From positions 7,225,625-7,289,624 of the forward strand of contig JAQNBH010000011.1 in NCBI GenBank assembly GCA_028752905.1: a stretch of 64,000 nt of DNA, given 5' to 3'. A program made the translations under genes and the position numbers. Shown here in pieces: positions 16,436 to 53,005 of this stretch. The first letter of the stretch is position 1. Each line of letters begins with the position of its first letter. The DNA comes from Cladorhizidae sp. MBARI D1340-BT2. Taxonomy: Eukaryota; Porifera; Demospongiae; Poecilosclerida; Cladorhizidae. Below the pieces are notes generated by a model, which ran no database searches, was not told where the DNA came from, and worked only from the letters and a program-made list of their open reading frames with translations.

Positions 16436-19400
16436 GTGAGTTATGGGAACAAGACTAGGGCAGAGCTTGATAAGGCCATTATACTTGATGCTATAAAATT
16501 TTAAGTTTGGGTTGGGGCTTACAAATGTAACTATCTCTTACAATCCAGCTCTAACAAGAATGCTGTATCTTAGCCCCTCTTCCTAGACCTAGCCCTAGCT
16601 TAAATTGTAATCCAAGTCCAAGTGTAGCCTAGCTCTTAATCCAATTCTAGCCCTAGAGCGAGCCCTAGTAGTCCTAACATTTGTAGTAGCCCTAGCCCTA
16701 GCTGTAAGTATGCACACAGCTAGCACAGGACCCATATTGACCTTATATGGACATAGCTGTAAATTATAACTTTTTAAAAAATTAATTAATTATTATTATT
16801 TTTTTATTTTAATTTTATTATTATTATTTTTTTATTATTTTTTTAATTATTTAAGCATGCTCAAACAATCAAGCATGAACAATCAAGCATGTACAAATAA
16901 ATACATCAATCCAGAAGTCACTCCTATAAAACAATTCAAGCCTGTCATCCACCATGGGGGCACAGGAGGGAGGCGGCTGATCCACATAGTGGCATTTCCC
17001 CTCCACAAGCAGATGTAATTCTAACCCCAGGCTGTAAATTCTAAACCGAGGCTTTAAATTCTAACCCCAGGCTTTAAATTCTAACCCCAGGCTTTAAATT
17101 CTAACCCCAGGCTGTAAATTATAACCCCAGGCTGTAAATTATAACCCTAGGCTGTAAATTCTAACCCAAGGCTGTAAATTCTAACCCCAAGCTGTAATTC
17201 TAACCCCAGGCTGTAAATTATAACCAAAGGCTGTAAATTCTAACCCCAAGCTGTAATTCTAACCCCAGGCTGTAATTCTAACCCCAAGCTGTAAATTCTA
17301 ACCCCAGGCTGTAATTCTAACCCCAAGCTGTAAATTCTAACCCAAGTCTGTAAATTCTAACCCCAGGCTGTAATTCTAACCCCAAGCTGTAAATTCTAAC
17401 CCAAGGCTGTAAATTCTAACCCAAGGCTGTAATTCTAACCCCAAGCTGTAAATTCTAACCCCAGGCTGTAATTCTAACCCAGGCTGTAAATTTTAACCCC
17501 AGGCTGTAAATTCTAACCCCAGGCTGTAAATTCTAACCCCAGGCTGTAAATTCTAACCCGAGGCTCTAACTTTAAAAAAAAAAATCTCTTTTTTCCCTTT
17601 TTTCTTCTTTAAAGCGTGCTCAAACAATCAAGCATGTACAAATAAATACATCAATCCAGAAGTCACTATCACATGCTATTGATCTAGCTGAGCATGATAG
17701 CCTTCTTGAACAGGCCCCTGACACCCGATCTAAAGCACTGGCTCTCTCGACTGCCATACCTCATGCGGGTGACTGGATCAACGTCATCCCTTCCCAGACC
17801 CTCGGCCTCCACCTTTACGATGCTGAGTTTCGTTTGTGCCTTCAATACTGGCTGGGACTCAGGATCGTGGAGGAGGGGACTCATTGCCCCATATGCCGGA
17901 CTGAGGCTGACTCCCTCGGTGACCACCAGATTGGTTGTGGTGGTAATGGGGATCGGATTTACCGACACAACTCCCTCAGGGACGCACTGTTCTCTGCAGC
18001 CCAGTCTGCTGCTCTGGCGCCCAGGAAGGAAATGCCGGCTCTAATCCCTGGATCTTCCAGCCGCCCTGCTGACATCTTCCTCCCCACATGGAAAAGGGGA
18101 CAACCAGCCGCCCTCGACATAACAGTCATTTCTCCACTGCAGCAGGCAACAATCTCTGGAGCTGCCACCACTCAAGGCTATGCCCTATCGGTGGCCAGAG
18201 ACCGGAAGATGGCGGCGCATTCAAGCGCTTGTCACTCGGTGGGTGTCAGCTTCATACCTGTTGCTGTGGAGGCATTGGGGGGTTGGGGCGAGGAAGGGTT
18301 GGAGACCATCAGGGCTATAGGCCGGCTTCAGGGACAACGCCTGGGAATACCACCAGCAGAATCAACACGCCACCTTCTCCAACGGTTGGCCATCTGCTTG
18401 TGGAGGGGAAATGCCACGATGTGGATCAACCGCCTCCCTCCCCGTGCTCCCATGGTGGATGGACAGGATTGAATTGTTTTATAGGTGTGACTTTTGGATT
18501 GATGTAATTAATTAAGTAATTATAAAAAATATTAAAAAACTCCTATAAAACAATTCAAGCCTGTCCATCCACCATGGGGGCACGGGGAGGGAGGCGGCTG
18601 ATCCACATAGTGGCATTTCCCCTCCACAAGCAGATGTAATTCTAACCCCAGGCTGTAAATTCTAACCCCAGGCTGTAAATTTTAACCCCAGGCTGTAAAT
18701 TCTAACCCCAGGCTGTAAATTCTAACCCCAGGCTGTAAATTCTAACCCCAGGCTGTAAATTCTAACCCCAGGCTGTAAATTCTAACCCGAGGCTCTAACT
18801 TTTTTTTTTTTAATCTCTTTTTCCCCTTTTTTCTTCTTTAAAGCGTGCTCAAACAATCAAGCATGTACAAATAAATACATCAATCCAGAAGTCACTCCTA
18901 TAAAACAATTCAAGCCGGTCCATCCACCATGGGGGCACGGGGAGGGAGGCGGCTGATCCACATAGTGGCATTTCCCCTCCACAAGCAGATGTAATTCTAA
19001 CCCCAGGCTGTAAATTCTAACCCCAGGCTGTAAATTCTAACCCCAGGCCGTAAATTCTAACCCCAGGCTGTAAATTCTAACCCCAGGCTGTAAATTCTAA
19101 CCCCAGGCTGTAAATTCTAACCCCAGGCTGTAAATTCTAACCCCAGGCCGTAAATTCTAACCCCAGGCCGTAAATTCTAACCCCAGGCTGTAAATTCTAA
19201 CCTCATGCAATGTACAAGCTTCTAAAAGTTCCAACACACCAACGAAACAATGACGACCCAAATACAGTGGCAAAAAACAAAAGCAAGACAAAAACTGCAA
19301 AAACCACAAACAACAACAATAAAAGTCCGAAATCAAATGTGGAGAACGGATGGCCAATCTTCTTAGCCAAAGCCCGGCATTACCGCGCCAGAGGTTGATG

Positions 19401-22400
19401 GAGAGGCGTTGAAAGAGATGGCAGATGGAATCCACTGAAGGTATTCCAAGCCGGATACCCTGCAGGCGACCAATGGCTCTGATGGTGGAAACTGCTTCAG
19501 GGCACCAACCGCCTAAAGACTCGGCCACCAAAGGGATGAAGAGGACACCGACTTCTCGGCAAGCTCCTGAATGAGGTGCTATTTTCCTGTTCACCCCGAT
19601 AGTGAGCGAATGTCCACGAGTGGAAGCGGCCCCAACCTGAGTCAGATGTTGCATAGTTGAAACATCAATAACAGCAGGCTGCCCTCTTTCCCAGTTAGGG
19701 TTGAAAACATCGGCAGGACGACTACAGGTACCTGGGATCAGTGCAGGAACCTCCTTCCTAGGGGCTAGTGCTGCTGACTGGGCTGTAGAGAAGACAGAAT
19801 CTTTAATAGAATCATGACGATGGATTCTATCTCCCTCTGTTACCACCACAACCAACTTGATTATCACCCATAGAATCGGCTATCCTATGGCAGATGGGAC
19901 AGGGCACATTCTCATCAAACATTGGGAGCCCTAGCCAGTAATCAAGACTGAGGCGGAACTCCCGATCATGCGGATGGAGACCCAAAGCCTTAGAGGTAAT
20001 TAACCAGTCTCCAGCATGAGGAAGGGCACAAGAAAGGGCCAGAGCCTTTGAATGGATGTCAGGTGCTTCAGCAATTAAGAGGTCATAACGAGCTTGGTCG
20101 TTGCAACGTGAGAGCTGGCGTTGTTGCAAGGGAACATCAATAGCCTCAAAATCAGACCAATCAAGCCTGCCGGCGGCCAAGGCAAGATCATGAAGGCTGG
20201 GGCCAGATGGAGGGTTCCCAAGGATCCTGATAACTAGGTCACCGGATTGAGTCACAGAGCTGATGTAAGCAGCCGAGGCATGAAGAGAGGCACACCTTAG
20301 GCCTAGACCACCAAGGGAGCAAGGTAGACTGGCCTTCAGCAAACTCCACTTGGATACCCGGCCACCAGAGAGAGCATGCATGGCATTGTCAAAGGCAACA
20401 CAAACATCCTTGGTGTAATTGGGAGGACAAGTACGTAGAGCAAAGACAACCTTTGGAGAGAAAGACAGGAACGGAGAAGAGAACACTCCATTTGGGAATC
20501 CTGAAGATTTGCAACTCTAGCCAGAACAGCCTTCATTTTGACTACCCATTGAAGAACAAAAGTCTCACAATAGGAAGGTGGCCCGATAGGGGACCCTAGA
20601 AGACAAAAACCATCACGCGAGATAAGGATGTCCAGAGGAAGAGGATTGTTGTCGAAATTGGAACTCACAGGTATGTGCAAAAGCGATTTTGAATGGTTCA
20701 ATCTCAACCCACAAGAGTGGCATTCTTCGTCAATGATGGCAAGAGTGGCACAGAGGTCCTTAGCAGAGCCACACAGGGTGCCATCATCAAGATACCATAC
20801 ATTAAGCAGGAGGCCGGGTACTTCATCTCTAATTCTTTCCAAAATGGGCTGAAGGGCCAAAGCAAAGCGGGGACCAAGGGGATCCCCCTGCTGGACACCA
20901 CTACAACTAAGAATGGTACGATCCCCTAGCCTAAGGTAAGGTTGCGCCCCATAACAACACTCCATCCAAGCAGCCATGGAAGGAATGCGGGCTCTCACCT
21001 CCCTAAAAATGCTCTCACGGTCTACATAATTGAAAGCATTTGAGAAATCCAAGAGGAGGGTCCACCAATCGTCGGGCGATACTGTAATTCAAACCCTAAG
21101 CTGTAAATTCTAACCCCAGGCTATAAATTCTAAACCCAGGCTGTAATTGTAACCCAAGGCTGTAAATTCTAACCCCAGGCAGTAAATTCTAACCCAAGGC
21201 TGTAAATTCTAACCCAAGGCTATAAATTCTAACCCAAGGCTGTAAATTCTAACCCAGGGCAGTAAATTCTAACCCAAGGCTGTAAATTCTAACCCAAGGC
21301 TATAAATTCTAACCCAAGGCTGTAAATTCTAACCCAGGGCAGTAAATTCTAACCTCGGGCAGTTAGTTCTAACCCAAGGCTATTGCAGGATAGATGCAGG
21401 GATTTAAATAGTTTTCTCTCTCCCATAGCTGGTCCCTGCTGATGTGAATGTGACGTATGATTCACTTGGAGTCATTGCCAACCTTGACGTGTCTGGGGGT
21501 AAGTCACATGACTATCACCAGATCATTGTATACTGTTTTAAGGCCAGCTGACTCTCTCTGTAGGCATTGCTAATAGCAATGCAGCATTCTGACAGCTCTG
21601 TGGCCATGAAATAAAACTCTTGTTCTCTCGCTATGTCTCCATTGTGCAGGTGATGAAGTAGTGGATCGCGTGTACGATAGTTTTGTGGTGGTAAGTTTTA
21701 TCAATATTGCACTAACATTCTTGTAATATATTTTCTTTCAGCGAACTCTCAGTTGACATAGACCCCATTAATCACTTGAAATTTACTCTCTTTACATTTC
21801 GACAAGATGCTCTAGCCATGAGATGCTGAGACTCGTGTGAGCCGGTAGCTAGCTATCCAGCACGTGTTACAAACCACACCCCACATCCAGCACGTGATAC
21901 TTATTATCGTGCTTTTTCCACATCCGGTTCACATGCTAGATGCATGTGCTGGGGTGTGGTTTGTATCATGTGATGGATAGCTAGCTACCGGTATATAACT
22001 AGCTCGTGCGAGTCTTAGCATCTCATTATTCCTGATAAAGACTAGAGCATTAATTATTGAGAAGGTGATTGTGAGTATATTTATTATTTAAAGTGATACT
22101 TATTCTAGTGCTATTGTGTTACTTATTAGCGTGTGTGTGTGTGGTATGGGTCATCATAGATACCAAACGTGGCATAACCTTTGCAAGGACATTACAGGAT
22201 TCCCAGGCTTCTTCAGGTTATCTGGAATGTTGCTAGTGATAGTTCGTGGAATTAGTCTTAAAGAAAAAGGTTGGGTTTATTAGATCTTGGTACGTACGCA
22301 TGCAGAGATTCACAGATGCTTCCGGTTCCACCAGAGCTGGCGTAGCATGCACTTCCAGAGCAGCAACCAGTCTGCTTTTTGACTGTGCCACTTACAGCTT

Positions 22401-25400
22401 CATTACACGTACTATAGACCTGTTATACTCACTGTAGCTTCACCGAACAGCGTTTAGGCAGAACACTTACTGTACCTACCAGCATCAAACAACCAAGCTG
22501 CTTATGGATGATGTGGGCGTATTTCTGTTCCCCCCTCCCCCTCCCTTCTCTTCGTGACGTAGCTAGGCTTTGGCCAGCTCCCAGAAGCGCTAAGTCCTGC
22601 CCTGAGTATGCTTGCCAAGCAAGCCATATCACTGTTTTAGTGAGGGAGAGAACAGCCAGCACAACATGCGGCCATTCTCCCTGTGATGGCTCATGAAATG
22701 GTGTGGGTGGGGGGGTCCTAAGAAACACACAAGCTTGTGGCTGTACTGTACACCGCTCAATATTTTTTAAATCTATATTCCATCACACACACTCTTTCTT
22801 GTCTCTCCTCCCCACTCTCCTCTCCTCCCCACTCTCCTCTCCTCCCCACTCTCCTCTCCTCCCCACTCTCCTCTCCTCCCCACTCTCCTCTCCTCCCCAC
22901 TCTCCTCTCCTCTCCTCTCCACTCTCCTCTCCTCCCCATCTCCTCTCCTCTCCACTCTCCTCTCCTCCCCATCTCCTCTCCTCCCCACTCTCCTCTCTTC
23001 CCCACTCTCCTCTATTCCCCACTCTCCTCTCCTCCCCACTCTCCTCTCCTCCCCACTCTCCTCTCCTCCCAACTCTTCTCTCCTCCCAACTCTCCTCTCC
23101 TCCCCATCTCCTCTCCTCCCCACTCTCCTCTTTTCTTTTCCTGTTTGTTCTGTTCTCTCCATTAGAATGGGACTGGCCAGGGGCTTCCCTTTAGAGTGTT
23201 TATGAAGAACAGACTTCCATTTCGCCTTCACACTGGTTACCACAACAAACAGTCAGTGAAGCTCTAGAGACTACCCATCACCTTACAGCTTCAACTTTCT
23301 CCAACTCCATCTTCCCCATCCTCTCCCCTCCTCAGTTTCTCTCTGTCTCCCTCTCTTTTCCCATCTCCAACCCTTCTTTCCATGCCCTCAAATTTATCAA
23401 ATTTCTCTCCTCTCTCTATGTGTGTGCCATCTTTTTCCACTTCATCCTCTCCTCCTCTTTGCCGATCCTTTCCAAATCTCTCCTTGTAGACGTTACGGTC
23501 CCATATATGCCACTGCTGATGTGCACGCTTTGATGTACATGTAAGTTGCAACTACCCATTAGGTAGAAATAACGATGCATGGTAGAAGTCTGAGGTTTGC
23601 TACAAGCTTGGAAACGATGAGCAACTTAAAAAGCTGAAAATGGTTTGGGGGGCAGGGCAAAGCCAGGAAGAGCTAATGCTCTAGTTATATTGTCTTGAGG
23701 ACTCTGGGGTGATACCCGGTGTAGTTGATGCAGGCGGAAGTCCCTTGTCCAATCCTCGTCTTAGGCTTTGTGTGTTTTAACTTTTGTGATGAGTTAGTCG
23801 TGAAGAGTTGAAGAGTGTTCATTTGTGGAGAATAGGCCTTGGCGGATTTTGCTAGTATAACTCTGGGGGGGGGATAGGTGCTTCTGAGCGTTAGGAATTA
23901 TTCTAGAAAAAAATAAGTATCACTTCAGCTTATACTAGTCAAATAGTCTCCTCGTTTAATTTAACCTCAATTTCCTAAAACAGTACTTGCAGCATTCTGC
24001 CATGCCACAGGACCTCTGTAGGAAATCATAATATCTCTATAATGGTGTAACTACTGACCAAGGATTCAAAAACCATGATGGAAAATACAACATGTGCACA
24101 AGGCACGATGCAGACCTCAGACTCGGCAGCCGACATGTAACCATCTGCTTGTGAGTTAGCACAATTGAGCATTATTGAGAAAAATAGGTCCTTTGGAAAT
24201 AAAAACAAGAGAATAAAATGAGAGGAGAGTAAGAAGGAATTCTAATAATCCGCCAAGGCTTAGTGGGCATGGAAAAACATGTCTGTCGGTGATTAACTTT
24301 TCTTACACTCGTTGTGTATCCAGGGCCATCAAAAACTACAGACGGTTCAAGGGTAACCATGGTTACGACAACATAGAGAAGGAGATGCAGGTACAGTATG
24401 TTTACCTGACACAGCAGCGGCTCGGGTGATTTTTTTAAGATGACCAGGCCAGGAAGTGGTGTGGGCGTAGCTTTACTAAACTTGTATTGTATACACGATT
24501 GCTGGCCATATTTTTCCACTGCAGAAAGAAGTTGTCAAATACTTGTTGTCATGTTCACCCTAACCTACACAGTTATTTGCAACATTAAATATAATTATTA
24601 CCATTTCCTCTATTAGAAATATATTACCATATTTCCTCTGTTAGAAATATATTACCATAATATTATTTCCTCTATTAGAATGCGCACGTTCCATTCATTT
24701 CATGAGCTGCCTAGCTGTGCCTTCTAATATAGAGGGAGCATTTTATTCTAAGGTGCATTCTAATCGAGATAACACTGTAGTTTGTCTGTGGGGTGATATG
24801 AATATCTACCACTTGGTTCAGTCTTTTTTGTGACATAGTGGAACACAGATAGGAGTTCACTCGAGGCATTGCATCGTTCACTAGTGGTGTTCATGATCGC
24901 ATAAGTAGCTCGAAATGTACATGCGCCTCCTTATAAACCACACCCATAAATTTAATGTTCTCGAAGTGAACCGGCCAAAGCTGCCTCTGTGACGTGATTG
25001 TGTGTGGGGGGGGGGGGGGGGGGGGGGAGATGGGAAGAGGGAGGAGATTTTTTTTTGTCATTATTGTTATTGTATTTTCTGTCTTATCCGAACTTCAGGC
25101 CATCTTCATTGGCCATGGTCCAGCCTTCAGAAAGAACTATACTGTGGAGAGCTTTGAGAATATTCAGCTCTACTCTCTGATGTGTGGTGAGAAGGGCATG
25201 TAATTCTAAGCTCTACTCTCTGATGTGTGGTGAGAGGGACATGTAATTCTAAGCTCTACTCTCTGATGTGTGGTGAGAGGGGTATGTAATTTAAGCTCTA
25301 CTCTCTGATGTGTGGTGAGAGGGAGATGTAATTCTAAGCTCTACTCTCTGATGTGTGGTGAGAGAGACATGTAATTCTAAGCTCTACTCTCTGATGTGTG

Positions 25401-28400
25401 GTGAGAGGGGACATGTAATTCTAAGCTCTACTCTCTGATGTGTGGTGAGAGGAGCATGTAATTCTAAGCTCTACTCTCTGATGTGTGGTGAGAGGGGCAT
25501 GTAATTCTAAGCTCTACTCTCTGATGTGTGGTGAGAGGGGCATGTAATTCTAAGCTCTACTCTCTGATGTGTGGTGAGAGGGACATGTAATTCTAAGCTC
25601 TGCTCCCTGATGTGTGGTGAGAGGAGCATGTAATTCTAAGCTCTACTCTCTGATGTGTGGTGAGAGGGACATGTAATTCTAAGCTCTACTCTCTGATGTG
25701 TGGTGAGAGGAGCATGTAATTCTAAGCTCTACTCTCTGATGTGTGGTGAGAGGGACATGTAATTCTAAGCTCTACTCTCTGATGTGTGGTGAGAGGGACA
25801 TGTAATTCTAAGCTCTACTCTCTGATGTGTGGTGAGGGGGACATGTAATTCTAAGCTCTACTCTCTGATGTGTGGTGAGAGGAGCATGTAATTCTAAGCT
25901 CTACCCTCTGATGTGTGGTGAGAGGAGCATGTAATTCTAAGCTCTACTCTCTGATGTGTGGTGAGAGGGGCATGTAATTCTAAGCTCTACTCTCTGATGT
26001 GTGGTGAGGGGGACATGTAATTCTAAGCTCTACTCTCTGATGTGTGGTGAGAGGGACATGTAATTCTAAGCTCTGCTCTCTGATGTGTGGTGAGAGGGAC
26101 ATGTAATTCTAAGCTCTACTCTCTGATGTGTGGTGAGAGGGACATGTAATTCTAAGCTCTACTCTCTGATGTGTGGTGAGAGGGACATGTAATTCTAAGC
26201 TCTACTCTCTGATGTGTGGTGAGAGGGACATGTAATTCTAAGCTCTACTCTCTGATGTGTGGTGAGAGGGACATGTAATTCTAAGCTCTACTCTCTGATG
26301 TGTGGAGAGAGGGGCATGTAATTCTAAGCTCTACTCTCTGATGTGTGGTGAGAGGGGCATGTAATTCTAAGCTCTACTCTCTGATGTGTGGTGAGAGGGA
26401 CATGTAATTCTAAGCTCTACTCTCTGATGTGTGGAGAGAGGGGCATGTAATTCTAAGCTCTACTCTCTGATGTGTGGTGAGAGGGACATGTAATTCTAAG
26501 CTCTACTCTCTGATGTGTGGTGAGAGGGACATGTAATTCTAAGCTCTACTCTCTGATGTGTGGTGAGAGGGGCATGTAATTCTAAGCTCTACTCTCTGAT
26601 GTGTGGTGAGAGGGTCCATGTAATTCTAAGCTCTACTCTCTGATGTGTGGTGAGAGGGACATGTAATTCTAAGCTCTACTCTCTGATGTGTGGTGAGAGG
26701 GTCCATGTAATTCTAAGCTCTCCTCTCTGATGTGTGGTGAGAGGGACATGTAATTCTAAGCTATACTCTCTGATGTGTGGTGAGAGGGACATGTAATTCT
26801 AAGCTCTACTCTCTGATGTGTGGTGAGAGGGGCATGTAATTCTAAGCTCTACTCTCTGATGTGTGGTGAGAGGGACATGTAATTCTAAGCTCTACTCTCT
26901 GATGTGTGGTGAGAGGGTCTAAGCTCTACTCTCTGATGTGTGGTGAGAGGGGCATGTAATTCTAAGCTCTACTCTCTGATGTGTGGTGAGAGGGACATGT
27001 AATTCTAAGCTCTACTCTCTGATGTGTGGTGAGAGGGGCATGTAATTCTAAGCTCTACTCTCTGATGTGTGGTGAGAGGGACATGTAATTCTAAGCTCTA
27101 CTCTCTGATGTGTGGTGAGAGAGGCATGTAATTCTAAGCTCTCCTCTCTGATGTGTGGTGAGAGGGACATGTAATTCTAAGCTCTACTCTCTGATGTGTG
27201 GTGAGAGGGACATGTAATTCTAAGCTCTACTCTCTGATGTGTGGTGAGAGAGACATGTATTTCTAAGCTCTACTCTCTGATGTGTGGTGAGAGGGACATG
27301 TAATTATAAGCTCTACTCTCTGATGTGTGGTGAGAGGGACATGTAATTCTAAGCTCTACTCTCTGATGTGTGGTGAGAGGGGCATGTAATTCTAAGCTCT
27401 ACTCTCTGATGTGTGGTGAGAGGGAGCATGTAATTCTAAGCTCTACTCTCTGATGTGTGGTGAGAGGGACATGTAATTCTAAGCTCTACTCTCTGATGTG
27501 TGGTGAGAGGGTCATGTAATTCTAAGCTCTACTCTCTGATGTGTGGTGAGAGGGGCATGTAATTCTAAGCTCTACTCTCTGATGTGTGGTGAGAGGAGCA
27601 TGTAATTCTAAGCTCTACTCTCTGATGTGTGGTGAGAAGGTCATGTAATTCTAAGCTCTACTCTCTGATGTGTGGTGAGAGGGGCATGTAATTCTAAGCT
27701 CTACTCTCTGATGTGTGGTGAGAGGGACATGTAATTCTAAGCTCTACTCTCTGATGTGTGGTGAGAGGGACATGTAATTCTAAGCTCTACTCTCTGATGT
27801 GTGGTGAGAGAGGCATGTAATTCTAAGCTCTACTCTCTGATGTGTGGTGAGAGGGTCCATGTAATTCTAAGCTCTACTCTCTGATGTGTGGTGAGAGGGA
27901 CATGTAATTCTAAGCTCTACTCTCTGATGTGAGGTGAGAGGGGCATGTAATTCTAAGCTCTACTCTCTGATGTGTGGTGAGAGGGTCCATGTAATTCTAA
28001 GCTCTCCTCTCTGATGTGTGGTGAGAGGGACATGTAATTCTAAGCTCTACTCTCTGATGTGTGGTGAGAGGGGCATGTAATTCTAAGCTCTACTCTCTGA
28101 TGTGTGGTGAGAGGGAGATGTAATTCTAAGCTCTACTCTCTGATGTGTGGTGAGAGGGGCATGTAATTCTAAGCTCTACTCTCTGATGTGTGGTGAGAGA
28201 GACATGTAATTCTAAGCTCTACTCTCTGATGTGTGGTGAGAGGGGCATGTAATTCTAAGCTCTACTCTCTGATGTGTGGTGAGAGGGACATGTAATTCTA
28301 AGCTCTACTCTCTGATGTGAGGTGAGAGGGGCATGTAATTCTAAGCTCTACTCTCTGATGTGTGGTGAGAGGGACATGTAATTCTAAGCTCTACTCTCTG

Positions 28401-31400
28401 ATGTGTGGTGAGAGAGGCATGTAATTCTAAGCTCTCCTCTCTGATGTGTGGTGAGAGGGGCATGTAATTCTAAGCTCTACTCTCTGATGTGTGGTGAGAG
28501 GGGCATGTAATTCTAAGCTCTACTCTCTGATGTGTGGTGAGAGAGGCATGTAATTCTAAGCTCTACTCTCTGATGTGTGGTGAGAGGGACATGTAATTCT
28601 AAGCTCTACTCTCTGATGTGTGGTGAGGGGGTCATGTAATTCTAAGCTCTACTCTCTGATGTGTGGTGAGAGGGGACATGTAATTCTAAGCTCTACTCTC
28701 TGATGTGTGGTGAGAGGGACATGTAATTCTAAGCTCTACTCTCTGATGTGTGGTGAGAGGGACATGTAATTCTAAGCTCTACTCTCTGATGTGTGGTGAG
28801 AGGGACATGTAATTCTAAGCTCTACTCTCTGATGTGTGCTGAGAGGGACATGTAATTCTAAGCTCTACTCTCTGATGTGTGCTGAGAGGGACATGTAATT
28901 CTAAGCTCTACTCTCTGATGTGTGGTGAGAGGGACATGTAATTCTAAGCTCTACTCTCTGATGTGTGGTGAGAGGGACATGTAATTCTAAGCTCTAAGCT
29001 CTACTCTCTGATGTGTGGTGAGAGGGGCATGTAATTCTAAGCTCTACTCTCTGATGTGTGGTGAGAGGGACATGTAATTCTAAGCTCTACTCTCTGATGT
29101 GTGGTGAGAGGGACATGTAATTCTAAGCTCTACTCTCTGATGTGTGGTGAGAGGGACATGTAATTCTAAGCTCTACTCTCTGATGTGTGGTGAGAGAGGC
29201 ATGTAATTCTAAGCTCTACTCTCTGATGTGTGGTGAGAGGGGCATGTAATTCTAAGCTCTACTCTCTGATGTGTGGTGAGAGGGACATGTAATTCTAAGC
29301 TCTACTCTCTGATGTGTGGTGAGAGGAGCATGTAATTCTAAGCTCTACTCTCTGATGTGTGGTGAGAGGGACATGTAATTCTAAGCTCTACTCTCTGATG
29401 TGTGGTGAGAGAGGCATGTAATTCTAAGCTCTACTCTCTGATGTGTGGTGAGAGGGACATGTAATTCTAAGCTCTACTCTCTGATGTGTGGTGAGAGAGG
29501 CATGTAATTCTAAGCTCTACTCTCTGATGTGTGGTGAGAGGGGCATGTAATTCTAAGCTCTACTCTCTGATGTGTGGTGAGAATTCTAAGCTCTACTCTC
29601 TGATGTGTGGTGAGAGGAGCATGTAATTCTAAGCTCTACTCTCTGATGTGTGGTGAGAGAGGCATGTAATTCTAAGCTCTACTCTCTGATGTGTGGTGAG
29701 AATTCTAAGCTCTACTCTCTGATGTGTGGTGAGAGGAGCATGTAATTCTAAGCTCTACTCTCTGATGTGTGGTGAGAGAGGCATGTAATTCTAAGCTCTA
29801 CTCTCTGATGTGTGGTGAGAGGGGCATGTAATTCTAAGCTCTACTCTCTGATGTGTGGTGAGAATTCTAAGCTCTACTCTCTGATGTGTGGTGAGAGGGG
29901 CATGTAATTCTAAGCTCTACTCTCTGATGTGTGGTGAGAGAGGCATGTAATTCTAAGCTCTACTCTCTGATGTGTGGTGAGAGGGGCATGTAATTCTAAG
30001 CTCTACTCTCTGATGTGTGGTGAGAATTCTAAGCTCTACTCTCTGATGTGTGGTGAGAGGGGCATGTAATTCTAAGCTCTACTCTCTGATGTGTGGTGAG
30101 AGGGGCATGTAATTCTAAGCTCTACTCTCTGATGTGTGGTGAGAATTCTAAGCTCTACTCTCTGATGTGTGGTGAGAGGAGCATGTAATTCTAAGCTCTA
30201 CTCTCTGATGTGTGGTGAGAGGGGCATGTAATTCTAAGCTCTACTCTCTGATGTGTGGTGAGAATTCTAAGCTCTACTCTCTGATGTGTGGTGAGAGGGG
30301 ACATGTAATTCTAAGCTCTACTCTCTGATGTGTGGTGAGAGGGGCATGTAATTCTAAGCTCTACTCTCTGATGTGTGGTGAGAGGGACATGTAATTCTAA
30401 GCTATACTCTCTGATGTGTGCTGAGAGGGGCATGTAATTCTAAGCTCTACTCTCTGATGTGTGGTGAGAGGGACATGTAATTCTAAGCTATACTCTCTTA
30501 TGTGTGGTGAGAGAGGCATGTAACTCTCTTGAGTGCCTTCTCAGTCTTTAAACAATCCTCTCCTTCATGTATGAATATTTCTTCTCTGCACATCTTATCC
30601 TCTTATCCTGGACCTCCTCTCCTACCACCCCTCTCTCTCCATCATGCTGTTTCTCTTCCTATTGCTCCTTCTTCTACAGACCTACTGAACATCAAGGAAG
30701 CCACCAACAATGGCACCTATGGAGCTCTTCATGCCATCCTCGATCCCAAGTTATCTGCCAAGCTCCCACCACCAGTTTCTCCGAAAGCATTGCCAGGAAC
30801 CCTGAAGGTGTGTCCCTTCCCTCAGGATGTGCAAGTGCAGAGAAAGAGGAGTATTTGTGAAGACTGTGTGTGTCGGAGTGGCTACTGTAATATCACCAAC
30901 GACACCATCCTGAGCAGCAATAAGAAACTTTTTGACATCAATTCTACTCAGAGTACGTCTGAGAGATTATGAATTAAAATGTCTGCTCGTTAACTTCACC
31001 TTGTTTTCTCGTCTTGTACAACATTTCTCCCTCACCTCCCCCCCTCTCCATCCTCTCCTTCCTATTCTCTTTCTATTACATGCATCCTCTCTCCCTCTTG
31101 CTCAAGCACTGACTTCTTCTCTTCTCCTTCATACAGTTTTCTCTGTCTTTTGAGTATTGTCCCTGAATGTCAGGGACTGTCATGATGATGGATACACCGA
31201 CAAGCAAGACAGTCCCTGTCAGTCTTCTCACTCTTCCTCCTCAACCTCCGATAATTGTTACCTTTGTCATCTCTTTCTCCCCGACCCTCCTCTACTCATC
31301 TTTCCCACCCAATCCCTCTCTCTTTCTTTCCGCACTTTCACTTTTTCTTCTCCCAAACCCGTCCCTCTCCTCCCCACCTCGTCATTCTCTGTATGCAGAG

Positions 31401-34400
31401 GACAGCTATAAGAGCTACCATAATCCTTGGGGAGTTCCTGTTGGAGGTTACGGAGATGGAGCATGCATTTTAAGCCAATTGGACTACATTAGTCTCTATA
31501 GCAGCACACTGAAGATCCCATTGTGGTCAACATACACGCTCGACCCAGAAGTAAGAATTTCTAATTGATAATGTAAACTAGGTTTTGAACCTCATTCCAA
31601 TAATCTGTCACAGATTGTGAATGGCAAGATGCCACTTGACAAAGCTGCAAGTGCCTGTTGGCGACACGACCCCCGAGTGTCCATTTCTGAATCCACCAAC
31701 TGTTCTACGTACTTGCCAGAGAATGGGAATGGAAGTGTGGAAGATGGAATGCTGGCTGTTCCGTTCCTGTTCCCAGTAAATTCCTCACAGAATCTTTCCA
31801 TGTCTGTGTTTACTAATATTATCTTCCAGTCACGCTCCTTCAATAGTGAGTCATGCTTTAGAACTTTGCTTAAAATTCTTTCATACACTTCAGGGTTTCA
31901 TTTAGGGGGGGGGGGGGGGCAGATGCCAACCCTTGGAGCCTTTTTACCCCCCCCCCCCCCCCCCCCCCTTTGGAAATTGTATTATTAAAATTTATTAGAA
32001 ACTTTGTCACATCTTTAACCATCATGCCATCATGCCCCCATTAAAATCCAGATTCCTCCAGTTGCCCCCCCTTGAACAATTTTTTAAATGAACCCCCTAC
32101 ATTTGCTAAGTTCCATTTCACCAGTTGAATGAGTATAGCTGAGTGTGTGTGGGTGTGTGTAAATTCAATAAATTAATTATTAGTATATAATCTAGTGAAA
32201 GAATCTTATATTTATAGACATTGAATCAGCTTATCACACTCGACCATGAAGAGTATGTATGAAAGCTTGTAGGTGGAGGCTGACCTTTACTAGATACAGA
32301 AAATTAAATATATATAAAAAAAAAAAAAAAATTTAAACATTACACATTTGCCTAGTTGACACCTTACCTCAGACCCTTCAGACCCTGTCAACTCACACAT
32401 CTCACTACACGAGCAAGAGATGACATGCTAAAATTTCACCTCCCCCCCCCCCCCCCCCTAATAACAATGTCTGTGGCACTATTGCCTACAATACTTTCAG
32501 ATCTCATGTCTGCCATGAAAAATGCAAATCAATTTTAGACTTTCACAATTGTAATGAGTTTCTTACAAAAAAAAATTTTCGCACATGAAAATCCTCCCAC
32601 ATTCATGCACTTTTGAAAAACACTGAGGGTTTCATACAGAGGTAGGGGTGCCCTGGGATCCCCCCCCCCCCCCCCCGCACCTGAAATTTCAATAATCATA
32701 ATCTGTCATCAAATGACCACAACGCTAGTCTATGATCTTTGTTGGTTTGTATGCGTCTTACATTTGATTGAAGTAGCAATTGAGAAACGAAGACATCACT
32801 TAATTCTAGATCGAAGACGATTTTTGATATGCTCATTTTACTAAAGGGCAATTCCGGGAAAATGTCAACCAAGGGGTCAAAATTTCAAAATGGGTTTTGA
32901 GTGCTCTAATATACCATTTTGAAGCTAAATAAATGAAGTTTCATATTCATATTCTGCAATTTTTAACCCAATATGACAAATGGGTAACGAGATATGCTCG
33001 TTTTTATGTAATTGCCATAGTAACAGATTATGACAGAAGCTTTGTTCTGTTTTAGATCAGACACCTCCTACAGTTGGGAATTGAGTTTTGCTCCAAATTA
33101 AGTGTATTTGGATCATTTTTATAACTTTTTAAGTAGATTCAATGGAATTTTTTTGGTTACATCCACTAATTAATATTTTACGGTTTGTAGTTTCGGGATA
33201 TAATTGATGCCGTACGTACGCCACAAATATGTGCATCTTTATTAATTATTTCAGTGATATTCAAGTATTAACTAAAACCATTTCATATTCTTTTTTTAGT
33301 TTTCCATCGGCATAACTTCCACCCTTAATGGAAAGGCCACACCCCTATGACTTACGGAAAAACCTGTGACGTACATACAAGGTTCTTGTACGTCCGTCAC
33401 GTACGTATGTCACAGCTTAACAAATTCCCATCTAGACATTGTTAAAAGATGTAGAATTTGTTATTGTACAGCCTTAATCTTTGCCCTTTTCTTTGTTTGT
33501 CCTTCTGCCATTGACAATTCGATCTTCAGAAAAGTTAGAATGGCTACAGCACTAATTCAATCTTCTATTTATAGTTTGCTACCTTACATTTTCTAGAACC
33601 TTCTAAACTGACTAGACTGATAGTCACCATTATACAGCTGACAAGGTTAGGGCTTGGACAAAGGATAGGTTTAGTGCTTGGACCATGACAGGGTTAGGAT
33701 TGGACAAAGGATAGGTTTAGAGGTTGGACATTGACCAGGGTTGGGCTTGGAGAAAGGCTATAGTTAGGGGTTGGAGGATTAGGGCTTGAACAAAGTCTAG
33801 GGTTAGGGGTTGGACATTGACCAGGGTTAGGGCTTGGACAAAGGCTAGGGTTAGGGTTTGGACATTGACTAGGGTTAGGGCTTTGACAATGACTTGAGTT
33901 AGTGCTAGGACAATGACTTGTACAGGTTAGGGCTTGGACCATGACTAGGATTAGGCTTGGACCATGACTAGGATTAGGCTTGGACCATGACCTGGGTTAT
34001 GGCTTGGACAATGACTATGGTTAGAGGTTAGGGTGTAAATAAGCAAAGCTGCCTGAGCCTGTAGCCAGGAAGGTAGGCTGGTAAATAAACAAAGCTGCCT
34101 GAGCCTGTAGCCAGGAAGGTAGGCTGGTAAATAAACAAAGCTGCCTGAGCCTGTAGCCAGGAAGGTAGGCTGGTAAATAAACAAAGCTGCCTGAGCCTGT
34201 AGCCAGGAAGGTAGGCTGGTAAATAAACAAAGCTGCCTGAGCCTGTAGCCAGGAAGGTAGGCTGGTAAATAAACAAAGCTGCCTGAGCCTGTAGCCAGGA
34301 AGGTAGGCTGGTAAAGAAACAAAGCTGCCTGAGCCAGTAGCCAGGAAGGTAGGCTTGTAAAGAAGCAAAGCTGCTGCTTGAGTTATACCTACAAACTGTT

Positions 34401-37400
34401 AGTCATTCCCCAAATACATACACTATCTAGCCTGCAAGTAAAACTATTTTAGCAGCTGGCATTGAGGAAGTTACAAGATCTGTTAAGAAGTACGTAGTTC
34501 ACTAGGTTCCTTTCTGTGTGCTACAGGCATCCCTTTTAGGGAAGAACTGGTGAATATGAATCTATATCTCTGCTGTAAACTCTAGTAGTAGGGCAGCTGG
34601 AGAGTGGGGAAGTTAGATGCAGCAATGTTTGGCTAGACTTTACTAGAGCAGCTGGGGAGTGCAAGTCCTTGGGAAGTGTGTTCCTGTTTCGTCCTTCATT
34701 GAGCAAGTGACTTGTGACGCCACTTCCAAGAAGTGCATGACACGAGAATGCTCAACTGTGTGGATCTGATTGATGAGTTTGCACCACAAAGCAGCTCAGG
34801 GACCTTGCAGTACTACCAGTGAAAGTCTATTGAGCAAGTGACCTGTGACGCCACTTCCAAGAAGTGCATGACACGAGAATGCTCAACCTGTGTGGATCTG
34901 ATTGATGAGTTTGCACCACAAAGCAGCTCAGGGACCTTGCAGTACTACCAGTGAAAGTCTATTGAGCAAGTGACCTGTGACGCCACTTCCAAGAAGTGCA
35001 TGACACGAGAATGCTCAACCTGTGTGGATCTGATTGACGAGTTTGCACCACAAAGCAGCTCAGGGACCTTGCAGTACCAGTGGAAGTCTACGGATAGCCG
35101 AATTGAGAAGGTAGACATGACTGATACAGTGGATGCAGTCTTTAATGAGCTGAAGAAACAGCTGAGTACCTTCCTACTCCATACCTTTGTGAAGAGAGAG
35201 CAAGCAGCTTCGTTTGACTCCTTGAAGAACTCCTGTGATGGTAAATCCATTGTTTTACAAGTCGATTTCTCTGAAAATGCGACGATTGCAGCACAGAAAG
35301 AAGTACAAGCAGCCCACTGGCACCACGCTCAGGCAACCATCTTCACCACTCACACTTTGATCAACAATGCTACTAATTTCAGTATGGTAGTAATTTCAGA
35401 TGACTTTAACCACACGAAATACAGCATTTTTGTTTTCATGTCACAGTATATTTTCCGAAGTCTCCGAGCGAAATTCCCAAACATAGAAACCGTCAATGTT
35501 TTCAGCGATAGGCCAACTTCTCAGTTTAAGCAGAGAGGTTCCTCTTTTCAAATCTCCACTCCACTACTGGGAGCAAGACCATGACATCTCAGATGGATTT
35601 TTTTTGCCACATCTCATGGAAAAGGTGTCATTGACAGGATTGGAGGGACAGTGAAGAGGGCAGTTTGGAGACACATTCTGTCAGAGAGAAGTCATATCAC
35701 CACTCCGCAAGAGTATTCAGCACTCGCCAAACAGCTTTGCCCAAATATTCAAGTTGAATTTGTTGCCAAGAGTGAGAATGATCAACAATCTGCATTTCTG
35801 GATGCCAAATGGGAAGGAGTGATGGCAGTCCCCCAAACACACAAAGTTCATTGCTTCTGGTGTGGATGAGGTCAAAGTAGCCGATACTTCCAACGAGAAG
35901 GAGAAATGTTTCCGAGTTTGTCGAATCCGCAACACCAATGATGTCACTGCTCCGACCAATTCAACAATTGAACAGGATTGTCCAATCGAAGACGATGCCC
36001 AGCCTCAGCTACCAGCACTGAACTTGACAATTGGATTGTGGGTTGTTATGGAGTATGATGGTGAAGAGTTTCCAGGGGAGGTGACCTGTATAGAGGATTC
36101 TTAAACGTCATGCATAGAAGTGCAAATGCTTGGAAGTGGCCGAGACCTGAAGACAAAATCTTCTACTCAAGAAACAAAATTGTACGTATCATTAACCCAC
36201 CAAGTGTTGCAGGCAATCGAGGACAGTTTGCGTTTGAAGACATTTAGCATCTGTTTATGTTATGCTTACAAGTACTTGCTTTGTCTAATAGTGCCTAGCA
36301 ATGCTCAGAATTCATTAATACTATCCTTAATCACACATGTACGTCCATCACGGGTTTTATGTACGTCCATCACAAAGTTTAATGAGGATTAATTTGATTA
36401 TACAATATTCAACAGTTAGGCTTTGGGTATTAAACATTACTTCTCTGCCTTAGTATGAAAACAAGAACAATATCCCTAGTAACTACACAGAGTTTGGACT
36501 TTAAACATTCCTACCCTATAATTTCCCATTTTTCTGCATCCGTCCATCACAACACTTTAACGAGGCCTAACTCCTCCCCTGTGTATTATGAAAGTGAAAA
36601 TAATTTTGACTAATGTCTAGCCTAGGTCAAGCCTTTGCGTGAATATGTATTGTATACAGATTTACCATTTCTGAAACTAGCTATAGCTCAATTTGTTGTC
36701 TGAATTGTACGTACGTCACACCGGAAGTGCCCTAAAGGAAACGCTCGGTGGTAGTCAGTAGAGCAAGCAAGATATTGAAATATCACACCATATGCACCGA
36801 GGACTCAGTCTCTACTGCGCACAAAATGGTTCCCCTGACAAAAAATCCTGTATGACCCCCCCTGAGTCACTATTACATGTTACATGGAGCTCATTATGTA
36901 TTCATTGTATACCGACAGGTAAAGTGTGGTTCACGACTCTACTTAAGATTGAAGCCTGGTTGAAGTTCTACCGCATGCCCCTTCATGTCCTCCTGGGCGT
37001 TGCCTTGGATGCTGATAGAGATGGAATGAGGGACAGGGACTCCACCTACTCTGATAAACACAGAGGCGTGGCCATTCCCACGCACTTCTTTGTGGTGATG
37101 ACTCGTTGTGCAGTAGGTGGAGACCTAAAGGCGTGTGCTGTCAACAATTTGAAGGTCATGGGAATATTGCTACAGCACCCACTGGAAGCAGGAGTGAGTG
37201 GAATATCAGAGTTCATTACAGATTTTTTTCAGGATGGAGAGGGAGGAGTAATAGGGAGAAACCATTGCTTGATCCAAATTTACCCCCAAATGCATGGAAC
37301 CCTAAGCTGGGGGTGTTATGTGCGGTAGGGGGGGGCCATAAAATCCTCATTTATAAACCTCGCTCGTCTATGGTTCATAAATAGAATGTTCGTATTGCCA

Positions 37401-49254: not shown

Positions 49255-49314
49255 TCTTGCAAGCCTGAACTTCACGTCTATTTCTGTAAACATCAAACAG
49301 AGAATGAAGGGAAG
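49255..49314 (+). CDS. possible 60-bp exon abutting the 23-bp array
   Basis: GGGCATGCAG|TCT ... GGGAAG|GTGAGG flanks 60 open bases encoding CKPELHVYFCKHQTENEGK after Ser. The spacing of Cys, His and the Leu-x-x-Phe-Cys core is faintly B-box-like. No neighbouring exon is found, so this is speculative. It is listed because the adjacent array starts at its would-be donor. Confidence 0.2.
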
Positions 49315-52300
49315 GTGAGGGAGTGCACGAGGAGGAGGTGAGGGAGTGCACGGGGAGGAGGTGAGAGAGTGCACGAGGAGGAGGTGAGAGAGTGCACGAG
49401 GAGGAGGTGAGAGAGTACACAAGGAGGAGGTGAGAGAGTGCATGAGGAGGTGAGAGAGAGTGCACGAGGAGGAGGTGAGAGAGTGCACGAGGAGGAGGTG
49501 AGAGAGTGCATGAGGAGGAGGTGAGAGAGTGCATGAGGAGGAGGTGAGAGAGTGCATGAGGAGGAGGTGAGGGAGTGCACGAGGAGGAGGTGAGTGAGTG
49601 CATGAGGAGGAGGTGAGAGAGTGCATGAGGAGGAGGTGAGAGAGTGCATGAGGAGGAGGTGAGAGAGTGCACGAGGAGGAGGTGAGAGAGTGCATGAGGA
49701 GGTGAGAGAGTGCACGAGGAGGAGGTGAGAGAGTGCATGAGGAGGAGGTGAGAGAGTGCATGAGGAGGAGGTGAGAGAGTGCACGAGGAGGAGGTGAGAG
49801 AGTGCACGAGGAGGAGGTGAGAGAATGAACGAGGAGGAGGTGAGAGAGTGCATGAGGAGGAGGTGAGAGAGTGCACGAGGAGGAGGTGAGAGAGTGCACG
49901 AGGAAGAGGTGAGAGAGTGCACGAGGAGGAGGTGAGAGAGTGCATGAGGAGGAGGTGAGGGAGTGCACGAGGAGGAGGTGAGTGAGTGCATGAGGAGGAG
50001 GTGAGAGAGTGCACGAGGAGGAGGTGAGAGAGTGCACGAGGAAGAGGTGAGTGAGTGCATGAGGAGGAGGTGAGAGAGTGCATGAGGAGGAGGTGAGAGA
50101 GTGCACGAGGAGGAGGTGAGAGAGTGCATGAGGAGGAGGTGAGAGAGTGCATGAGGAGGAGGTGAGGGAGTGCACGAGGAGGAGGTGAGTGAGTGCATGA
50201 GGAGGAGGTGAGAGAGTGCACAGGGAGCAGGTGAGAGAGTGCATGAGGAGGAGGTGAGTGAGTGCATGAGGAGCAGGTGAGAGAGTGCATGAGGAGGAGG
50301 TGAGAGAGTGCATGAGGAGGAGGTGAGTGAGTGCATGAGGAGGAGGAGAGAGTGCACGAGGAGGAGGTGAGAGAGTGCACGAGGAGGAGGAGAGAGTGCA
50401 TGAGGAGGAGGTGAGAGTGCACGAGGAGGAGGTAAGAGAGTGCACGAGGAGGAGGTGAGAGAATGCACGAGGAGGAGGTGAGAGAGTGCATGAGGAGGAT
50501 GTGAGAGAGTGCACGAGGAGAGGTGAGGGAGTGCACGAGGAGGAGGTGAGAGAGTGGACGAGGAGGAGGTGAGAGAGTGCATGAGGAGGAGGTGAGAGAG
50601 TGCACGAGGAGGAGGCAAGAGAGTGCATGAGGAGGAGGTGAGAGAGTGCATGAGGAGGTGAGAGAGTGCATGAGGAGGAGGTGAGAGAGTGCATGAGGAG
50701 GAGGTGAGAGAGTGCACGAGGAGGAGGTGAGAGAGTGCATGAGGAGGAGGTGAGAGAATGCACGAGGAGGAGGTGAGAGAGTGCATGAGGAGGATGTGAG
50801 AGTGGACGAGGAGGAGATGAGAGAGTGCATGAGGAGGAGGTGAGAGAGTGCACGAGGAGGTGAGAGAGTGCACGAGGAGGAGGTGAGAGAGTGCATGCGG
50901 AGGAGGTGAGAGAGTGCACGAGGAGGAGGTGAGAGAGTGCATGAGGAGGATGAGAGAGTACATGAGGAGGAGGTGAGAGTGCACGAGGAGGAGGTGAGAG
51001 AGTGCATGAGGAGGAGGTGAGAGTGGACGAGGAGGAGATGAGAGAGTGCATGAGGAGGAGGTGAGAGAGTGCACGAGGAGGTGAGAGAGTGCACGAGGAG
51101 GAGGTGAGAGAGTGCATGCGGAGGAGGTGAGAGAGTGCACGAGGAGGTGAGAGAGTGCACGAGGAGGAGGTGAGAGAGTGCATGCGGAGGAGGTGAGAGA
51201 GTGCACGAGGAGGAGGCGAGAGAGAGCACGAGGAGGAGGTGAGAGAGAGTGCACGAGGAGGAGGTGAGAGAGTGCACGAGGAGGAGGTGAGAGAGTGCAC
51301 GGGGAGGAGGTGAGAGAGTGCACGAGGAGGAGGTGAGAGAGTGCACGAGGAGGAGGTGAGAGAGTGCACGGGGAGGAGGTGAGAGAGTGCACGAGGAGGA
51401 GGTGAGAGAGTGCATGAGGAGGTGAGAGAGTGCACGAGGAGAAGGTGAGAGAGTGCGCATGAGGAGGAGGCAAGAGAGTGCACGAGGAGGAGGTGAGAGG
51501 GTGCATGAGGAGGAGGTGAGAGAGAGTGGACGAGGAGATGAGAGAGTGCATGAGGAGGAGGTGAGAGAGTGCACGAGGAGGTGAGAGAGTGCATGAGGAG
51601 GAGGTGAGAGAGTGCATGAGGAGGAGGTGAGAGAGTGCATGAGGAGGAGGCAAGAGAGTGCACGAGGAGGAGGTGAGAGGGTGCATGAGGAGGAGGTGAG
51701 AGAGTGCACGAGGAGGAGGTGAGAGAGTGCACGAGGAGGAGGTGAGAGTGCATGAGGAGGAGGTGAGAGAGTGCACGAGGAGGAGGTGAGAGAGTGCATG
51801 AGGAGGAGGTGAGAGAGTGCATGAGGAGGAGGTGAGAGAGTGCACGAGGAGGTGAGAGAGTGCATGAGGAGGAGGTGAGAGTGCATGAGGAGGAGGTGAG
51901 AGAGTGCATGAGGAGGAGGCGAGAGAGTGCATGAGGAGGAGGTGAGAGAGTGCATGAGGAGGAGGTGAGAGAGTGCACGAGGAGGTGAGAGAGTGCATGA
52001 GGAGGAGGTGAGAGAGTGCATGAGGAGGAGGTGAGGGAGTGCATGAGGAGGAGGTGAGAGAGTGCACGAGGAGGTGAGAGAGTGCATGAGGAGGAGGTGA
52101 GAGAGTGCATGAGGAGGAGGTGAGAGAGTGCATGAGGAGGAGGTGAGAGAGTGCACGAGGAGGAGGTGAGAGAGTGCATGAGGAGGAGGTGAGAGAGTGC
52201 ATGAGGAGGAGGTGAGAGAGTCCACGAGGAGGAGGTGAGAGAGTGCACGAGGAGGTGAGAGAGTGCATGAGGAGGAGGTGAGAGAGTGCACGAGGAGGAG

Positions 52301-53005
52301 GTGAGAGAGTGCATGAGGAGGAGATGAGAGAGTGCATGAGGAGGTGAGAGAGTGCATGAGGAGGAGGTGAGAGAGTGCTTGAGGAGGAGGTGAGAGAGTG
52401 TACGAGGAGGTGAGAGAGTGCATGAGGAGGAGGTGAGAGAGTGCACGAGGAGGAGGTGAGAGAGTGCATGAGGAGGAGGTGAGAGAGTGCATGAGGAGGA
52501 GGTGAGAGAGTGCACGAGGAGGAGGTGAGAGAGTGCATGAGGAGGAGGTGAGAGAGTGCATGAGGAGGAGGTGAGAGAGTCCACGAGGAGGAGGTGAGAG
52601 AGTGCACGAGGAGGTGAGAGAGTGCATGAGGAGGAGGTGAGAGAGTGCACGAGGAGGAGGTGAGAGAGTGCATGAGGAGGAGATGAGAGAGTGCATGAGG
52701 AGGTGAGAGAGTGCATGAGGAGGAGGTGAGAGAGTGCTTGAGGAGGAGGTGAGAGAGTGTACGAGGAGGAGGTGAGAGTGCATGTGGAGGAGGTGAGAGA
52801 GGCACGAGGAGGAGGTGAGAGAGTGCACGAGGAGGAGGTGAGAGAGTGTACGAGGAGGAGGTGAGAGTGCATGTGGAGGAGGTGAGAGAGGCACGAGGAG
52901 GAGGTGAGAGAGTGCGAGGAGGAGGCAGAGTGCATGAGTAGGAGGTGAGAGAGGCACGAGGAGGAGATGAGAGAGTGCGAGGAGGAGGTAGAGTGCATGA
53001 GGAGG
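49311..53005. repeat. 23-bp purine-rich minisatellite, about 160 copies
   Basis: Units of 23 bp (GAGGAGGAGGTGAGAGAGTG plus CAC or CAT) with variants of 17-25 bp. The plus strand is almost pure purine with GGAGGAGG blocks. The minus strand lacks stop codons in all three frames over about 3.5 kb, giving three overlapping frames of about 1,170-1,280 codons rich in Ser, Leu, Pro and His. These are composition artefacts. A roughly 310-bp block is duplicated near 52070-52750 (the rare GTGCTTGAGG and GTCCACGAGG variants recur). Confidence 0.96.

What the first reader, a model, noticed from the sequence alone, without database searches (positions are those of the whole stretch)
25160..30525. A 5.4-kb minisatellite made of an exon end plus its own splice donor
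The 43-bp unit carries the last 19 bases of ENPP exon g and the GTGAGA donor. About 125 near-perfect copies of the exon-donor junction lie directly downstream of the real one. Seen directly: the exon-derived part and donor stay intact in almost every unit, while the post-donor bases vary. Inference: the copies may act as decoy 5' splice sites or soak up U1 snRNP. Splicing at any later copy would add TAA in frame shortly after exon g. It could tune ENPP expression, or simply be tolerated because only the first donor is used.
Basis: partly seen in the sequence, partly recalled or inferred. Interest (0 to 1): 0.85.

Follow-up and report, generated by a model that had tools for sequence, protein, structure and literature searches.

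The report
Sponge ENPP intron of repeated splice donors
In a sponge, the end of one protein-coding exon together with its splice signal has been copied about 126 times in a row into the next intron; it looks like a side effect of a genome full of such repeats rather than a switch, but it is a natural test of how cells pick the right splice site.

Summary
A 43-bp minisatellite (25166-30527, 126 units) begins inside exon g of an ENPP1/3-like gene. Each unit carries the last 21 nt of the exon plus the donor; 121 of 126 keep GT. The family is private to this locus: 126 forward and 1 reverse match in 857 Mb. An ENPP paralog 121 kb upstream has the same intron position, one donor and no such array, so the exon came first.
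It is most likely a 'mirage' minisatellite: a tandem duplication across an exon-intron boundary, expanded inside the intron and tolerated because exon definition favours the donor closest to the exon's own acceptor. The host is very likely a demosponge (COX1). In 46 other exon loci of this genome I found 2 more boundary minisatellites, one at a donor and one at an acceptor, against roughly 0.4-0.7 expected if array edges fell at random (P 0.05-0.15). Donor-bearing arrays are not enriched genome-wide. GT is not better conserved than the unit's other slow positions, so there is no sign of selection for decoys.
Closest precedents are amphioxus mirages and the human ABCA7 VNTR, where next-copy donor use and length-dependent exon skipping are reported. 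Mis-splicing here is therefore plausible; regulation is unsupported. New member of a known kind.

The parts
24355..24390 (+). 3' end of ENPP exon f (NHGYDNIEKEMQ), donor CAG|GTACAGT
   Evidence: junction seen once within 8 kb
25099..25186 (+). ENPP exon g, 88 nt, AIFIGHGPAFRKNYTVESFENIQLYSLMC|(D)
   Evidence: 72 of 88 nt identical in a paralog
25187..25192 (+). authentic 5' splice site GTGAGA of exon g (copy 1)
25166..30527 (+). 43-bp minisatellite, 126 units; each = last 21 nt of exon g + GTGAGA + about 16 nt of intron
   Evidence: TRF; units; 121 of 126 keep GT
29556..30269 (+). 3' stretch where the six 33-bp deletion units (units 103, 106, 110, 114, 117, 120) recur every 3-4 units, a sign of recent block amplification (inference)
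   Evidence: unit order; 23-mer positions
30486..30527 (+). last unit (AGCTATACTCTCTTATG...), diverged; its donor at 30507 would leave a 173-nt intron
30528..30679 (+). single-copy rest of the intron (152 bp) with pyrimidine-rich acceptor cttctacag
30680..30952 (+). ENPP exon h, 273 nt (multiple of 3), DLLNIKEATNNG...
31399..31550 (+). ENPP exon i (EDSYKSYHNPWGV...), boundaries approximate

Best explanation
A 'mirage' minisatellite. A segment of about 41-43 bp spanning the exon g/intron boundary (last 21-25 exon nt, the donor and about 16 intron nt) was tandemly duplicated, and the copies expanded on the intron side by ordinary minisatellite turnover to 126 units. The intron would have been about 0.2 kb without the array and is now 5.5 kb. 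Because all extra copies lie inside the intron, the protein is unchanged as long as copy 1 is used. Copy 1 is favoured because it is the donor closest to exon g's acceptor (an 88-nt exon; exon definition), not because of its own sequence, which 106 other copies share from -21 to +6. Leakage to copy 2 or later gives a premature stop and probably decay of the transcript; skipping of the in-frame exon h is also possible. Shown: anatomy, local origin, exon older than array, stop on later donors. Inferred: tolerance through exon definition, leakage products, origin by duplication then slippage or unequal exchange.
For: Exact 21-nt exon identity and contiguity. Family private to the locus: 126 forward, 1 reverse in the genome with <=2 mismatches, reversed-pattern control 0. 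Tandem ENPP paralog at C2:7129327 has the same intron position, one GTAAGT donor, the next exon within about 1 kb, and no array at the donor (TRF lists a 0.3-kb TTA microsatellite and minor repeats only), so array sequence derives from exon. 10 of 11 ENPP junctions tested are single-copy, all but this one. The 164-kb region is 47% minisatellite. Two more boundary minisatellites in 46 exon loci: a kinase donor (L091, about 42 bp, 18.8 copies) and a kinase acceptor (L070, 51 bp, 44.1 copies). Predicted U1 pairing is -8.1 kcal/mol for copy 1 and for 116 of 126 copies including it. Among near-equal donors the upstream one is preferred under exon definition (PMC9225289, abstract, section 6). Amphioxus mirages are reported not to interfere with regular splicing in the cases looked at (PMC3087553 passages; PMC3902484 passage).
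Against: No RNA data: use of copy 1 is not shown. Copies 2 to 5 would still make exons of ordinary size (131 nt for copy 2), and the upstream preference in PMC9225289 is only 60% over all near-equal events, so leakage may be large. The human ABCA7 VNTR, built much the same way, does leak to the next copy, and exon 19 skipping rises with length (PMC5954066 passages), so 'harmless' may be too strong. Intron-definition rules would favour the last copy (173-nt intron). The duplicated ancestor is inferred: the unit has TTCTAAG where the exon has TTCAG. Copy number rests on one assembly whose reads I could not see. The exon sample is small (2 of 46).
Confidence: 0.85

Rival explanations
1. Functional decoy array: the extra donors bind U1 or compete with copy 1 to tune ENPP output through nonsense-mediated decay, exon h skipping or U1 protection of the transcript, in proportion to copy number.
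For: 121 of 126 copies keep GT; 107 of 126 are identical at -21..+6; all 125 later donors give a stop; exon h is in frame; in ABCA7 one-unit retention occurs, exon 19 skipping rises with length, and in much brain tissue the alternative transcripts together exceed the canonical one (passages).
Against: GT varies in 5 of 216 cells against 17 of 3888 at the other slow positions: not better conserved but worse (p 0.005, variants not independent). Donor-bearing arrays are not enriched against the reversed pattern: 2282 against 2589. An acceptor-side counterpart exists in an unrelated gene. The paralog lacks the array. In ABCA7 the one-unit retention itself did not change with VNTR size.
Confidence: 0.08
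2. Pre-existing satellite or mobile repeat inserted next to exon g and happened to match it.
For: The genome is crowded with minisatellites. One reverse-strand match with <=2 mismatches exists whose place was not listed.
Against: No second array of the family in 857 Mb. The 21-nt match is coding sequence of ENPP, 23 of the last 25 nt of exon g shared with a paralog that has no such array.
Confidence: 0.02
3. Assembly collapse or expansion artefact.
For: One assembly only; a long array of near-identical units is hard to assemble.
Against: Units differ in ordered ways, including six 33-bp deletion units in one stretch and scattered 44-bp and one-base variants, which a simple stutter would not make (inference); the contig is 55.6 Mb. 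Exact copy number remains uncertain.
Confidence: 0.05

Closest known systems
'Mirage' minisatellites of amphioxus (Adh3, globins BflGb6 and BflGb9, TnC, PGBD5)
   Same: Minisatellite-like tandem duplication spanning an exon-intron boundary, contiguous with the real boundary, at donors or acceptors; splice signals repeated.
   Different: Demosponge instead of cephalochordate. BflGb6 has 3 or 6 units of 150-160 bp (Adh3 units 10-72 bp) against 126 units of 43 bp here; I did not see the Adh3 copy numbers. No RT-PCR here.
Human ABCA7 intron 18 VNTR (25 bp, about 12-427 units)
   Same: The unit holds the exon's own donor; array directly downstream of the exon; a next-copy donor gives an out-of-frame product.
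   Different: As described, the ABCA7 unit begins at the donor GT, whereas here it also carries 21 nt of exon. Population length variation and splicing effects are measured there, unknown here.
Variable internal tandem repeats at exon-intron boundaries of human genes in segmental duplications (PMC2812944)
   Same: Tandem repeats at exon-intron boundaries that can change splicing.
   Different: Those repeats vary between recent paralogs and can be kept in the exon; here the copies lie in the intron and would add a stop.
Lipomyces [D] stwintrons (PMC7138796)
   Same: Proposed duplication of an intron's donor element next to itself.
   Different: 4-7 nt duplications making nested introns, not a minisatellite.

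Membership tests
mirage minisatellite | Repeat unit spans an exon-intron boundary | tested here: met
   21 nt of exon g + donor + intron in the unit; 114 of 126 keep all 21 exon nt, 121 of 126 keep GT
mirage minisatellite | Array contiguous with the authentic boundary | tested here: met
   Copy 1 is the real junction, 25186|25187
mirage minisatellite | Locus-specific, derived from the neighbouring exon rather than a dispersed family | tested here: met
   126 forward + 1 reverse match genome-wide; paralog without such an array
mirage minisatellite | Normal mRNA splicing preserved | not testable with these tools
   no RNA data for this organism
mirage minisatellite | Length instability between alleles or somatically | not testable with these tools
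   one assembly, no reads; variant units and 33-bp recurrences only suggest turnover
ABCA7-type donor VNTR | Unit contains the exon's donor, array directly downstream | tested here: met
   121 of 126 units keep GT
ABCA7-type donor VNTR | Copy number varies in the population and changes splicing | not testable with these tools
   no population or RNA data
introner-like element (intron gain by dispersed copies; definition recalled) | Related copies at many loci, new intron position | tested here: not met
   family private to the locus; paralog shares the intron position without the repeat

The most novel reading that the evidence does not exclude
Array length sets ENPP output. With 120 further intact donors after exon g, a copy-number-dependent share of transcripts is diverted into stop-containing products or in-frame skipping of exon h, so that minisatellite instability makes individuals, or cell lineages within one sponge, differ in ENPP activity. 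More broadly, in this minisatellite-rich genome boundary arrays at donors and acceptors would be common enough to be a standing source of splicing variation.
Probability: 0.1. Interest if true: 0.72.

Novelty: new member of a known kind. Interest (0 to 1): 0.42.

Why it matters
It is a clean natural experiment on splice-site choice: 107 of 126 junctions are identical from -21 to +6, so local donor sequence cannot explain which one is used, and exon-centric and intron-centric rules predict opposite ends of the array (an 88-nt exon with copy 1, a 173-nt intron with copy 126). It extends exon-boundary minisatellites, found in my paper searches in amphioxus and human genes, to a demosponge. It also suggests that where minisatellites fill about half of a region, such boundary copies arise at about the rate that random array edges would give.

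Tried and rejected
Other repeated donors in the neighbourhood: of 50 merged arrays in 164 kb, several have donor-like units (49313-53005 GAG|GTGAGA; 34035-34374; 99240-99742 minus strand). In the flanks of 49313, 34035 and 99240 that I read in three frames by eye I recognised no exon running into the array, so I did not call them mirages; no protein search was made there. The 18-kb 54-bp array in an upstream ENPP intron starts about 0.5 kb after the exon motif and is not a boundary array.

Genome-wide excess of donor arrays: the triple AGGTAAGT pattern gave 1337+945 matches against 1640+949 for the reversed pattern; no excess. The counts are of match instances, so long arrays weigh heavily. 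Five such arrays were read by eye: the longest open run up to the first exact donor was about 32 codons, and I recognised no exon; for some the array goes on upstream of the first exact copy, so this is weak. One search was a failed version of that script. A second pattern (GGTGAGA x3) did not complete.

Random-edge model: 50 arrays per 164 kb gives 0.37-0.67 expected edges inside 80-92 exon ends, 2 seen, P 0.05-0.15. A modest excess cannot be excluded. The array density comes from one region, not from the sampled loci.

Exon sample: 40 loci from the 122 PKA-query rows and 6 from the 112 ABC-query rows. Not every match end is a true splice boundary. One search flagged 9 loci with repeated 14-mers within 45 bp of a match end (L056, L058, L059, L070, L082, L085, L091, L094, L095). 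Only L070 and L091 were seen to repeat exon sequence; L085's array starts at the donor with almost no exon. For L056 and L058 I read only the printed 3' ends. The kinase subtypes named for L070 and L091 are by eye.

The paralog's intron length was not computed (that line failed); the next exon shows within 900 nt. Only two exons of the paralog were seen.

Not settled: Pfam family searches (PF01663, PF00069) and a G-alpha query did not complete. Original amphioxus Adh3 papers did not appear in my searches. No related-species genome was available.
Full report
What is there. The window is C2:7225625-7289624 of an 857-Mb, 325-contig genome. A COX1 copy from that genome reads through with TGA as tryptophan. 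So the host is very likely a demosponge. On the plus strand lies an ENPP1/3-like gene. Its exons g (25099-25186) and h (30680-30952) join as ...FENIQLYSLMC|DLLNIKEATNNG..., which aligns across the junction with ENPP1 in the PDB sequence search. Between them is a 43-bp minisatellite, 25166-30527, 126 units. It starts inside the exon: the last 21 nt of exon g are the first 21 nt of unit 1.

How regular it is. 121 of 126 units keep the donor GT; 107 of 126, the real one included, are identical from -21 to +6; predicted pairing with the U1 5' end is -8.1 kcal/mol for 116 of 126 copies, the real one among them, with 2 at -9.7, 3 at -8.6 and 5 at -3.6. The 23-mer around the junction occurs 126 times in the window; the largest number in 100 shuffles was 0. 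Every one of the 125 later donors would retain an in-frame TAA (SLMCGEKGM*). Variation in the 108 43-bp units sits at positions 28-32 (82 of 540 cells). The exon part shows 12 of 2268, GTGAGA 8 of 648, GT alone 5 of 216, and the intronic tail 33-43 only 2 of 1188. GT is somewhat more variable than the other slow positions (5 of 216 against 17 of 3888, p 0.005, variants not independent). The exon part and donor are thus not specially protected; the whole unit looks young and homogenised apart from one variable spot. Six 33-bp units recur every three or four units near the 3' end, which suggests block amplification.

Where it came from. The family is private: 126 forward and 1 reverse match with up to 2 mismatches in the whole genome, reversed-pattern control 0; the place of the reverse match was not listed. 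A paralog of the gene lies 121 kb upstream on the same contig. Its exon g shares 72 of 88 nt, its intron sits at the same place, it has one GTAAGT donor, and the next exon follows within about 1 kb; TRF on that locus lists a 0.3-kb TTA microsatellite and minor repeats but no array at the donor. The coding exon is therefore the source and the array the later addition. In the array the unit joins CATGTA to ATTCTAAGCTC, against exon ATTCAGCTC, so the first duplicated segment may have reached 25 nt into the exon, with a two-base change (inference).

Is it special to this gene? Of 11 ENPP junctions tested, only this one is repeated. But the 164-kb region is 47% minisatellite (list). I sampled 46 exon loci found with human kinase and ABC-transporter probes (40 loci from 122 rows; 6 from 112 rows). 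Two carry boundary minisatellites: L091, a kinase exon (S6K-like by eye) ending ...WWSFGVLM|GTGAGT, whose last 9 nt and donor recur in units of about 42 bp, 18.8 copies downstream; and L070, a kinase exon (MARK/SIK-like by eye) whose acceptor and first 21 nt recur in 51-bp units, 44.1 copies upstream. Both came from the kinase probe; none of the 6 ABC loci had one. If array edges fell at random, 0.4-0.7 such cases would be expected (P 0.05-0.15). So boundary arrays arise at about the rate that the abundance of minisatellites predicts, at donors and acceptors alike. A genome-wide count of tandem donor consensus shows no excess over the reversed pattern (2282 against 2589).

How it most likely works. 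The array is intron growth by minisatellite turnover from a duplication across the boundary. The protein is safe as long as copy 1 is used. Copy 1 is the donor closest to the exon's own acceptor. Published data show that among near-equal donors the upstream one is preferred under exon definition, though by a modest margin (60% over all near-equal events; PMC9225289, abstract, section 6). The opposite rule, closest across the intron, would pick copy 126 and leave a 173-nt intron but a 5.4-kb exon. In the human ABCA7 gene a 25-bp VNTR whose unit begins with the exon 18 donor shows retention of one unit and exon 19 skipping; skipping increases with VNTR length, one-unit retention does not (PMC5954066, passages). 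A leak of the same kind is plausible here, and exon h, 273 nt, could be skipped in frame. That is inference; no RNA was available.

What is known. Amphioxus 'mirages' are tandem duplications of exon-intron boundaries in Adh3, globin, TnC and PGBD5 genes, reported not to disturb regular splicing (PMC3087553 passages; PMC3902484 passage). Human repeats at exon-intron boundaries are described in PMC2812944 (passages). In PMC7138796 (passages) donor duplications are proposed to make nested introns. A C. elegans paper links a minisatellite to alternative splicing regions (PMC4039745, abstract). My searches listed no sponge case among the rows shown, but the library lacks most subscription papers. 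The feature is a new member of a known kind, notable for its size, its near-identical donors and its setting.

Noticed in passing
whole 164-kb region around the window (C2:7165625-7329624): 47% of the sequence is tandem arrays (period >=10, >=3 copies), several of 10-18 kb, e.g. a 54-bp array of 18 kb in another ENPP intron (-1988 to 16046 in window coordinates) and a 46-bp array of 9.7 kb.
   Followed up: partly
C124-C128 of the same genome, L019-L022: 98 COX1 matches: many apparently identical full copies on a few contigs, one (L019) beside an ND5-like frame (by eye), plus shorter copies on chromosome-size contigs: odd mitochondrial concatemers or assembly debris, and nuclear copies.
   Followed up: no
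L070/L096 (C6:18743392-18746770): Acceptor-side counterpart: 51-bp units, 44.1 copies, with the acceptor AG and the first 21 nt of a kinase exon.
   Followed up: partly
window 34698-35077: 132-bp unit repeated 2.9 times at 98% inside open reading frames (KSIEQVTCDATSKKCMTREC...), apparently a recent repeat of coding sequence downstream of the ENPP exons; identity not determined.
   Followed up: no
window 17576-21088: Reverse-transcriptase-like and related reading frames (by eye) on both strands within an ENPP intron, flanked by 20-bp arrays of one family (AATTCTAACCCCAGGCTGTA).
   Followed up: no
window 49313-53005: 23-bp array of 164 copies with a strong donor-like GAG|GTGAGA in its unit, downstream of an SH2/PH-like reading frame (family named by eye), with no exon recognised at its edge.
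   Followed up: partly
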